Shown: positions 54,852-64,000 of the stretch, piece after piece
How positions within the stretch are numbered: position 1 is the first letter of the stretch
How the letters are laid out: each line of letters starts with the position of its first letter
NCBI RefSeq assembly: GCF_000018205.1
Contig: NC_009881.1
Coordinates: forward strand, 1,167,061-1,231,060
DNA: 64,000 nucleotides
Source of the DNA: Rickettsia akari str. Hartford
GTDB lineage: Bacteria > Pseudomonadota > Alphaproteobacteria > Rickettsiales > Rickettsiaceae
Reading direction: 5' to 3'
Position numbers and translations under genes: made by a program
Notes under the pieces: model-generated
The model's input: the letters and a program-made list of their open reading frames with translations, nothing else
Databases searched by the model: none
Told to the model about the DNA's origin: nothing

Positions 54852-55676
54852 ATGAAAGACAAAGTAGCAGTAATTACCGGTTCTACTAGCGGTATCGGGC
54901 TTGAGATAGCAAAACATTTTGCAAAACTTGAGTCTAAAATAGTTATTAACGGTTTTGAAAAAAAATGAAGTAGCCAAAATTTTAGCAGAATTGAAAAAGC
55001 TTGGTACAAGTAGCGCATTTTATCAAGGAATAAATTTGGTAAAACCTGAAGAAATACGTTCTATGTTTGAGAAAATAATAAAAGAATTCGGTAAAATAGA
55101 CATATTAGTAAATAATGCCGATATTCAGATCGATAGGAGCAACATGCTGAATACCGGCATTATTTACTAATATGTCTCATGTTGCTCCTATCGATGAATT
55201 TCCTGAAGATAAATGGGAGCAAATTTTGCGTATAGATTTAATATCCTCTTTCTATACTACAAAATATGCAATACCGATTATGAAAAAAATGGCTTTGGAC
55301 GAATTGTTAACATTGCTTCCGCTCATGCATATGTCGCATCACCTTTAAGTCGACATATGTAGCAGCAAAGCATGGTATCATTGGGCTTACCAAAACCGTT
55401 GCTTTAGAAGTGACTGAGAATAATATTACAGTTAATGCTATCTGTCCCGGTTACGTCAACACACCGCTCGTGCAGAATCAAATAGCAGATACTGCTAAAG
55501 CTAGGCATATCAGTGAAGAATCAGCGTTAATGGATGTAATCCTTAAATCCCAAGCTACGAAAAAATTTGTAGAAGCTGATGAAATAGCAAACTTAGTAAT
55601 ATTCTTATGTGATGAAAAAGCATCATCAATAACAGGTAGTGGACTCTTGATAGATGGCGGCTGGACGGCGCAGTAG
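54852..55676 (+). pseudogene. 3-hydroxybutyrate dehydrogenase-type SDR pseudogene
   Basis: After a strong aggagg site, the frame gives MKDKVAVITGSTSGIGLEIA, the NAD-binding TGxxxGIG of short-chain dehydrogenases. An extra A in an A8 run at 54958 shifts it. It resumes as NEVAKILAELKKLG to IDILVNNADIQ, where an inverted 49-base copy interrupts it. It continues as HVAPIDEFPEDKWEQIL, GRIVNIASAHAYVASP (one base lost), then CPGYVNTPLVQNQIA and GSGLLIDGGWTAQ. The catalytic Ser and YxxxK region is shifted. The C-terminus fits BdhA better than PhbB. Confidence 0.8.
55098..55195. repeat. Inverted duplication inside the dehydrogenase pseudogene
   Basis: Segment A (55098-55128, agacatattag to gatattcag) is followed by 49 bases (55129-55177) that are the reverse complement of A plus B, then by B (55178-55195, catgttgctcctatcgat). 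A-B joined directly restores the expected coding sequence. The inverted copy differs from A at one base. Confidence 0.85.
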
Positions 55677-61570: not shown

Positions 61571-62605
61571 TTAATTTGTTAATTTACATAAACATTTAGT
61601 AAATTCGCTTGGACATATTCTTGTACTAGAACTACTCGTGACTAAATTAGTATCAACCTTATTGATAAATCGTAGCAATATATTTGTCAAACTATTAATA
61701 AAAATTTTATTTGTTCCAAGTGTCGGAATTCGAGTATATTGAATTTCATATTTATCTGCGATTAATTTATATTCAATATCAAGTTCTACTAGTGTTTCAA
61801 CATGCTCGGATACAAATGATATAGGTACGATAATTATGTTTTTTTTTAACTTTCCTGCTAGCTCTATTTCATTTTCCGTATTTGGTTTTAACCACTCTAT
61901 ATGTCCTACTCTACTTTGGTAAGTTATCTTATAATCTAGATCTTTTATATTTAATTCTTTGACTATTGCTTTTACAGTTTCTTTTATCTGAAAACTATAA
62001 GGGTCACCTGCTTTTATTATTTTTTCTGGTAACCCGTGAGCAGAAAATAATACACGAAAATTTTTATCGTTGAGTTTTTCATTAATCAATGAAACATGGG
62101 TTTTTATAAAATGTTCTTCTGTAGGATAACAACAAATTGTTTTAATTGGAATATCAATATCAAGGTTTTGTAAAAAATTTTTAACCGATGATCCTGTCGT
62201 AGTACTTGAAAATTGAGGATATAGAGGCAATAATATTATTTCACTCGGATTATATATTTTTATTTGACCTATTACTTCTTTAGCAAACGGTGCTGAATAT
62301 CTCATATTTATAAAAATAGCAAAATCTTCTTTTATAAGTTGTTTTAACTTTTCGGTTAGTGCTAATTTCTGCTCCTCTGTTTCCTGAAGTAAAGAAGATT
62401 TACCACCGATTAAAGAATAAATTTTTTGAGATTTTTTCTCTCTAGTGATAGAAATTATTTTTGCAATAATATATCGTAATGGATTCGGTAGATTAATTAT
62501 AGCTTTGTCATAGAACAGATTAAACAGAAAATACTTCACTGATTTAAGGTCTTTTGGACCTCCTAAATTAAAAAGTACTATTGCTATTTTTCTTCTTTTA
62601 TTCAC
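61571..62605 (-). CDS. hemH: Ferrochelatase
   Basis: A 344-residue enzyme that inserts ferrous iron into protoporphyrin IX. Blocks: [15 protein letters not shown] near the start, [35 protein letters not shown] with the metal-binding His, and [16 protein letters not shown] with the catalytic His-Glu. The C-terminus has three cysteines ([13 protein letters not shown]) that could bind a [2Fe-2S] cluster, as in some bacterial ferrochelatases. Its start overlaps hemE by eight bases. Confidence 0.95.
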
Positions 62606-63614
62606 AAGACCTAATACACTCTGTTAAAAATTCTACATTTTCCGGAGGTGTTTTAGGCAAAATACCATGTCCTAAATTAAAGATAAAATTCTTTCCTTTC
62701 ATTTCCTGAATAATTTTATAAGCTTTTTCTTTGATAATTTCTTTATTAGTTAATAATACAACAGGATCTAAATTACCTTGTACTATTACCTTGTCACTCC
62801 ACTTTTTCATTTTTTCAAGAGGGACCATTTGATCTACAGCTAAAATATCTACTGGTACTTCTTTTATAAATTTTTCGTACAATAATCCAGCTCCTTTAGG
62901 AAAAGCAATCATAGGAATTTTTGGAAAAACTTCTTTTACTTTCAGTATAATCTTTTTTGTCGGCTCTATTACAAATTTAGTAAACTCATCTTCTGGAAGT
63001 ACTCCTGACCATGAATCGAAAAGCTTTAAGACATCTGCCCCAGATTTTGCCTGATTTATAAGATGATCAGCTGTTTTTTCCGTAATAAAATTTAATAATT
63101 CTTTAGCAAGTATTTTATTTTCATATATAAATTTTTTGCTCGTTTTAAAATCATGTTTTCCTTTTCCTTCTAGCATATAACTCATAACTGTCCAAGGACT
63201 ACCTGCAAATCCTATTAAAGAAGTGGTGGAAGTTAAGTCTGCTTTTACTTTTTTTATTATTTCGTAAACTTTCCCTAATTTATTATTCGGATTGCTTTGT
63301 AGATATTTAAAATCTTCTTGTGATTTAAACTGCTTTAATATAGGTCCTATATTTTCTTTAAAATCTATTTCCCATCCAAAAGCATGAGGTAAAACTAATA
63401 TATCAGAAAAAATAATAGCTGCATCGAATCCATAACGTTTTATCGGTTGTAATGTTACTTCCGTTGCTTTGTTAACATCATAACAAAAATCTAGAAAATT
63501 TTTTGTTGTTTCTCTTACTTTTTTATATTCTGACAGATATCTGCCTGCTTGACGCATAAACCAAATAGGTATTTTATTATTATTTCCTTTCAACGGATTT
63601 GAAATTTGATTCAT
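62598..63614 (-). CDS. hemE: Uroporphyrinogen decarboxylase
   Basis: A 338-residue enzyme that decarboxylates uroporphyrinogen III to coproporphyrinogen III. The signature [17 protein letters not shown], the catalytic Asp region [26 protein letters not shown] and [13 protein letters not shown] are present. It is the first gene of hemE-hemH-hemJ, transcribed away from the adjoining replication-origin segment. Confidence 0.96.
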
Positions 63615-64000
63615 ACTAAATACTAAAATAATAAATATATTTATTATTGTTGTGTATGTAAACAGAATTATGTAAGTTAAATGTTTTAAACAGAGTTATC
63701 AACAAAATTTTTATTAAAATATTCTTAAAAATATAGGTATTTTAATTATTATTCACATAAGTTTATAATGAATTTATACAAGTGGATAATTAAGTGTAAA
63801 ATTCATTTATATCTTGGAAAAGACTATTTTTTCAAAGAAAAATGATATTTATTCACAATTTTATCCACAAACTATTTATTTAAAAGAAAGCACACTAGAT
63901 TTACTTGATTTAATAAGGATTTGAGGAAATTTTTTAATAGATTTTAATAGTAAAAATAATAAGTTATTAAAAAATTTATCCACAATTACATGTGTAAAGT
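63615..64000. other. oriC: Chromosomal replication origin (oriC), at least in part
   Basis: A gene-free, extremely AT-rich segment directly upstream of hemE. Two perfect DnaA boxes TTATCCACA lie at 63861-63869 and 63976-63984; two TTATTCACA (TTATNCACA) at 63749-63757 and 63849-63857; near matches at 63696-63704 (TTATCAACA) and 63781-63789 (reverse TTATCCACT). TTAA pairs spaced by five or six bases occur at 63677-63689 and 63934-63947, near the CtrA pattern TTAA-N7-TTAA but not exact. In Caulobacter and R. prowazekii oriC is next to hemE. It likely extends past the window edge. Confidence 0.8.

What the first reader, a model, noticed from the sequence alone, without database searches (positions are those of the whole stretch)
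63615..64000. Replication origin next to hemE with clustered DnaA boxes
Seen: six DnaA-box-like 9-mers in 300 bases, two perfect, in a gene-free AT-rich block. Known: oriC adjoins hemE in Caulobacter and R. prowazekii, where CtrA sites also occur. The TTAA pairs here have five or six, not seven, bases between them, so CtrA control may be altered or lost.
Basis: partly seen in the sequence, partly recalled or inferred. Interest (0 to 1): 0.7.

Follow-up and report, generated by a model that had tools for sequence, protein, structure and literature searches.

The report
Rickettsia chromosome origin beside hemE
This gene-free stretch is almost certainly where a Rickettsia chromosome starts copying itself; its binding sites for the starter protein DnaA, several of them in evenly spaced pairs, are kept across relatives, whereas sites for the regulator CtrA are no more common than chance predicts.

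Summary
Window 63615-64000 is exactly the 386-bp gap (17% GC) between hemE and ppsR (COG1806), which starts at base 1 of the same contig. It holds the densest DnaA-box cluster found: six boxes with at most one mismatch, four exact TTATNCACA. It lies in the GC-skew minimum plateau. The gap, its flanking genes and most boxes recur in the 22 of 23 Rickettsia genomes that have hemE.

It carries little weight: 10 of 22 species keep it in place, and CtrA-motif counts do not exceed composition-matched shuffles in any of the 22. The CtrA gene is present. CtrA control is therefore neither shown nor excluded.

Beyond the finding: four of six boxes have a same-direction partner exactly 12 bp to the 5' side (0 of 1000 shuffles). 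Two of these pairs recur in most of 22 loci checked from other genera. I infer head-to-tail DnaA dimers that help build the opening complex.

The origin type is known (Ioannidis 2007, citing Brassinga 2002). The pairing rule and the composition control are modest additions.

The parts
62598..63614 (-). hemE, uroporphyrinogen decarboxylase, left flank of the origin
   Evidence: TIGR01464, 424 bits against cut-off 303
63615..64000 (.). Replication origin: the whole hemE-ppsR gap; ppsR (COG1806) continues at contig base 1
   Evidence: recurs in 22 of 23 Rickettsia genomes searched
63684..63692 (+). Weak DnaA box A, TTTTAAACA, 12 bp 5' of box B
   Evidence: Two mismatches; TTTTNNACA in 22 of 22 species; at most one mismatch in 9 of 14 loci of other genera
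63696..63704 (+). DnaA box B, TTATCAACA
   Evidence: identical in 21 of 22
63710..63752 (.). AT-rich segment, candidate for unwinding (inferred)
   Evidence: Least stable 40-bp windows of this gap, but not of most relatives
63714..63728 (.). TTAA-N7-TTAA, CtrA-like motif, not above chance
   Evidence: in place in 10 of 22 species
63749..63757 (+). DnaA box C, TTATTCACA
   Evidence: exact in 14 of 22
63781..63789 (-). DnaA box D, TTATCCACT
   Evidence: identical in 21 of 22
63793..63801 (-). Weak DnaA box D', TTTTACACT, 12 bp 5' of box D on its strand
   Evidence: At most two mismatches in 12 of 22 Rickettsia species; a better match in G083, G084 and G032
63849..63857 (+). DnaA box E, TTATTCACA, 12 bp 5' of box F
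   Evidence: identical in 22 of 22
63861..63869 (+). DnaA box F, TTATCCACA
   Evidence: identical in 22 of 22
63930..63973 (.). AT-rich segment with a run of NAN triplets, second candidate for unwinding (inferred)
63964..63972 (+). Weak box G partner, TTATTAAAA, 12 bp 5' of box G
   Evidence: Two mismatches in 22 of 22 Rickettsia; no equivalent pair listed in other genera
63976..63984 (+). DnaA box G, TTATCCACA, 16 bp before ppsR
   Evidence: (identical in 22 of 22)
63991..63999 (-). Possible weak box opposite to G, CTTTACACA
   Evidence: Two mismatches; a box with at most one mismatch on this strand lies 14-16 bp after box G in G031, G032, G042, G043, G045 and G059, 6 of 14 loci

Best explanation
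It is the chromosomal replication origin of a Rickettsia, most likely R. akari (inferred). DnaA binds conserved boxes (B, D, E, F, G) and from several of them extends to a same-direction neighbour 12 bp away, forming head-to-tail dimers. The dimers join into one complex on a scaffold of nearly constant length and melt an AT-rich segment, where the helicase is loaded. Shown by sequence: location, boxes, pairing register, conservation, GC-skew minimum plateau. Inferred: DnaA binding, dimers, which segment opens. CtrA regulation here is undecided. The confidence given is for 'replication origin'; for the dimer step I would say 0.6.
For: Gap between hemE and ppsR, as in the published Rickettsia origins. 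Densest DnaA-box cluster, far above shuffles. Best skew split puts the origin at 1.22 Mb to 50 kb, a plateau holding the gap, and the terminus near 730 kb. Boxes E, F, G identical in 22 of 22 species, B and D in 21; box columns invariant at 49 of 54 against 121 of 332 elsewhere. Inter-box distances vary by at most two bases. Pairing: 4 of 6 boxes, 0 of 1000 shuffles; offset 12 seen 12 times and the next offset three times in 8 non-Rickettsia loci. dnaA is encoded (555 bits against cut-off 344).
Against: No functional data. The skew minimum is a broad plateau with its lowest block at 40 kb; 30% of the genome was not sampled, and reversed blocks exist. The pairing test was devised after seeing the pattern, and E/F were themselves fixed boxes. 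Three partners are weak: A and G' (two mismatches each) and D', which reaches two mismatches in only 12 of 22 species. G004 has 13 bp between E and F. No exact IHF site in this gap. The segment of lowest stability differs between species and lies at the hemE end in 18 of 22.
Confidence: 0.9

Rival explanations
1. A Caulobacter-type origin that CtrA represses through TTAA-N7-TTAA sites near or over DnaA boxes.
For: CtrA orthologue encoded (399 bits against cut-off 350). An exact N7 site at 63714 and three candidates under the published loose rule. CtrA sites are reported for R. prowazekii and other Rickettsia (PMC1914354).
Against: Candidate counts do not exceed shuffles in any of 22 Rickettsia gaps (P 0.12-1.00) or 19 gaps of other genera (P 0.13-1.00). 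The exact site is in place in 10 of 22 species; its 8 defining columns are no better conserved (0.86) than the average outside boxes (0.87). N7 is not a favoured spacing in the scanned genome.
Confidence: 0.25
2. The origin is here, but only the strong boxes act; the 12-bp partners are chance AT-rich matches.
For: Three partners match loosely. No G pair is listed in other genera, and D' varies.
Against: 0 of 1000 shuffles reach four at a common offset. Partner A has at most one mismatch in 9 of 14 loci of other genera. Offset 12 stands out in 8 non-Rickettsia loci.
Confidence: 0.2
3. An ordinary two-way promoter region with DnaA acting as a transcription regulator; replication starts elsewhere.
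For: hemE and ppsR diverge from the gap; 9 promoter-like sites against 4.9 (sd 2.3) in shuffles, one towards hemE matching 10 of 12.
Against: Six boxes at nearly fixed distances, no other such cluster in the scanned 70% of the genome, skew plateau.
Confidence: 0.04

Closest known systems
Rickettsia origins of Ioannidis 2007 (PMC1914354), after Brassinga 2002
   Same: Gap between hemE and COG1806, high AT, DnaA boxes, a few CtrA-like motifs.
   Different: R. akari is not named in that main text. There CtrA-like motifs are counted as sites; here they do not exceed shuffles. Paired boxes are not mentioned in the parts I saw (sections 6 and 10 and passages).
Caulobacter crescentus origin (Cori)
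   Same: Flanked by hemE and COG1806; DnaA boxes, with CtrA and IHF encoded in the genome or related proteins present (PMC1914354).
   Different: Cori has five footprinted CtrA sites and an IHF site. Here there is one exact CtrA motif at chance level and no exact IHF motif.
Basal unwinding system (BUS) of Bacillus subtilis
   Same: Tandem DnaA boxes with up to 3 bp between them (PMC8287927 passages) resemble the 3-bp-spaced pairs; a run of six NAN triplets lies 13 nt 5' of box G in 17 of 22 species.
   Different: The run is on the side of the box that does not fit the E. coli geometry (orientation partly recalled). On the fitting side no run is clearly longer than in shuffles.

Membership tests
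hemE-type origin of Rickettsia | Flanked by hemE and COG1806 (ppsR) | tested here: met
hemE-type origin of Rickettsia | Cluster of DnaA boxes above chance | tested here: met
hemE-type origin of Rickettsia | Higher AT than the genome | tested here: met
   17.4% against 32.0% GC in the window
hemE-type origin of Rickettsia | GC-skew switch | tested here: met
   Broad plateau 1.22 Mb to 50 kb; 70% of genome sampled
hemE-type origin of Rickettsia | IHF site WATCAN5WTR | tested here: not met
   No exact match in this gap; matches in 7 of 22 species
hemE-type origin of Rickettsia | Replication starts here in cells | not testable with these tools
   No read data
CtrA-controlled origin of the Caulobacter kind | CtrA sites above chance | tested here: not met
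   One exact, three loose; shuffle means 0.39 and 3.00
CtrA-controlled origin of the Caulobacter kind | CtrA protein encoded | tested here: met
   NF045991
CtrA-controlled origin of the Caulobacter kind | CtrA binds and represses | not testable with these tools
   Needs footprints
BUS | Tandem DnaA boxes with short gap | tested here: met
BUS | DnaA-trio array 0-16 nt from a box in the right orientation | tested here: inconclusive
   3'-side runs not clearly longer than shuffled (P 0.43-1.00); 5'-side run of six at box G, P 0.09

The most novel reading that the evidence does not exclude
Rickettsiaceae origins follow a shared layout: DnaA boxes in head-to-tail pairs 12 bp apart, within Rickettsia on a scaffold of nearly constant length. 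The CtrA sites counted in such AT-rich origins would be base-composition artefacts, so these intracellular bacteria would have dropped direct CtrA repression of initiation while keeping the CtrA gene for other targets.
Probability: 0.4. Interest if true: 0.5.

Novelty: new member of a known kind. Interest (0 to 1): 0.33.

Why it matters
It points to one 386-bp gap as the origin of this chromosome. It shows that the spacing argument about CtrA, for or against, has no weight at this base composition. It also gives a concrete layout of DnaA pairs that footprinting can test. The suggested link between CtrA-site number and host association (PMC1914354) would need a composition control.

Tried and rejected
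Canonical DnaA-trio array: inconclusive. Single unwinding segment by stability: species differ, and 18 of 22 have their minimum at the hemE end. dif site as support for the terminus: one match with 5 mismatches at C1:757418 in the scanned 70%, but 18% of 60 permuted motifs also have such a match, so not used. IHF: no exact match. Palindrome 63627-63648: in a region that varies between species. Two searches aimed at paired boxes gave one unrelated listing and none; broader searches were seen as listings, and the 2002 paper is not held. I therefore do not claim that the pairing is unpublished.

Full report
Identity and place. The window is bases 1,167,061-1,231,060 of a single 1,231,060-bp contig, so the finding sits at the contig's very end. 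The first base of the contig is the ATG of a 273-aa protein that matches the PPDK/PEP-synthase regulator family (NF003742, 302 bits against cut-off 225). I take it to be the COG1806/DUF299 gene of the literature (equivalence recalled). If the chromosome is circular, window 63615-64000 is the complete hemE-ppsR gap. Of 12 named loci found, the closest is R. australis (hemE 96%; the tool may leave out the window's own record). This kinship and the genome length point to R. akari str. Hartford; the length match is recalled and comes from no call.

Observation. Six DnaA-box-like 9-mers and the AT-rich, gene-free character are confirmed and lie above chance. The whole genome has 59 exact TTATNCACA; four fall in this gap, and in that list no other two lie within 300 bp. 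With one mismatch allowed, no other 290-bp stretch of the scanned 70% reaches five.

Origin evidence. Sampled GC skew (864,000 of 1,231,060 bases, missing blocks interpolated) is mostly positive from about 50 to 730 kb and mostly negative after that. The best two-way split puts the origin between 1.22 Mb and 50 kb, a plateau that includes this gap, and the terminus near 730 kb. The lowest block of the cumulative curve is at 40 kb, and reversed blocks exist at 200-250 kb and 1.02-1.10 Mb. dnaA is encoded far away, at C1:846770-848095.

Comparison within the genus. Of 23 Rickettsia genomes searched, the window's own included, 22 have hemE; G018 (270 contigs) gave no match and was left out. In 12 of the 22 ppsR is seen next to the gap; in the other 10 it lies at the far end of a contig linearised in or beside the gap. 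Gap lengths are 386-396 bp. Boxes E, F and G are identical in 22 of 22, B and D in 21, and C is exact in 14. Columns in the six boxes are invariant at 49 of 54 against 121 of 332 elsewhere (neighbouring columns and related species are not independent). D-E is 68 bp in 22 of 22, E-F 12 in 21 (13 in G004), C-D 31-32, B-C 53-55, F-G 113-115, whereas hemE-B varies from 81 to 91. Alignment columns with gaps number 31 of 95 on the hemE side and 9 of 308 from box B on.

Pairing. Four of the six boxes have a same-direction match (at most two mismatches) exactly 12 bp to their 5' side. None of 1000 shuffles that keep the six boxes fixed reach four at any of 44 offsets. The pattern was seen before it was tested, and E/F were themselves fixed boxes. 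As a check I looked at 22 loci of other genera: 8 returned and 14 that I chose, out of 46 non-Rickettsia genomes with a hemE match among the 85 genomes. An A/B pair is found in 17 of 22 and a pair at the E/F place in 20 of 22, for two of which (G062, G063) the place is assigned by order only; 21 of 22 have at least one 12-bp pair and G031 has none. In 8 of these loci, taken as representatives, offset 12 among boxes with at most one mismatch occurs 12 times and the next offset (9) three times. The loci are related, so this shows conservation, not independent origin. Partner A has at most one mismatch in 9 of the 14 loci. No G pair is listed outside Rickettsia, and a D pair is listed only in G083, G084 and G032.

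CtrA and IHF. The genome encodes a CtrA orthologue (NF045991) and three HU/IHF-family proteins, none of which reaches the NCBIfam cut-offs for IHF subunits. With the loose rule of PMC1914354 (methods passage) the gap has three candidate CtrA sites; its shuffles have 3.00 on average. The other 21 Rickettsia gaps behave alike (P 0.12-1.00 over the 22), as do 19 gaps of other genera (P 0.13-1.00; L117, L118 and L123 were left out because ppsR was not in reach). In the scanned genome N7 is not a favoured spacing: 124 against 156 for N6 and 218 for N8. The exact site at 63714 is in place in 10 species. No excess does not mean no binding: Brassinga 2002 is cited for R. prowazekii sites, and I could not read that paper. 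An exact IHF motif is absent here and present in 7 of 22 species.

Mechanism. I propose that DnaA sits on the invariant boxes, recruits a second DnaA to the 12-bp neighbour head to tail, and that the dimers combine to open an AT-rich segment. Candidates are 63710-63752 (3' of pair A/B, least stable in this genome), 63930-63973 (before box G, with a run of six NAN triplets at spacer 13 in 17 of 22 species) and the hemE end (lowest average stability, and the species' own minimum in 18 of 22). The E. coli geometry (trio over TTATT, PMC10797057 passage; orientation of box R1 recalled) would place trios on the other side of box G, so the trio reading stays open. All steps after the sequence facts are inference.

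Papers seen: PMC1914354 (abstract and outline, sections 6 and 10, passages), PMC8287927, PMC10721633, PMC10797057, PMC4468827, PMC4426382 and PMC2635572 (passages only). Others only as search listings.

Noticed in passing
63627-63648: Perfect 22-bp AT-only palindrome just upstream of hemE; the region varies in the other species and similar AT-rich matches occur elsewhere in the genome.
   Followed up: partly
63618-63626 in the alignment: This genome lacks about 9 bases just upstream of the hemE start that the aligned relatives mostly have.
   Followed up: no
L044 (G004), box E-F spacer: One species has a one-base insertion that makes the otherwise constant 12-bp register 13 bp.
   Followed up: no
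63903-63920 and 63667-63683: Two blocks conserved at about 0.95-0.99 that are not DnaA boxes; possibly promoter parts, untested.
   Followed up: no
54955-55676: Short open frames that look like pieces of one short-chain dehydrogenase gene, possibly a decayed gene (by eye only).
   Followed up: no
L117 and L118 (genomes G062, G063), upstream of hemE: ppsR is not found in the 1.65-kb stretch fetched, yet DnaA-box pairs remain, one of them two perfect boxes 12 bp apart.
   Followed up: no
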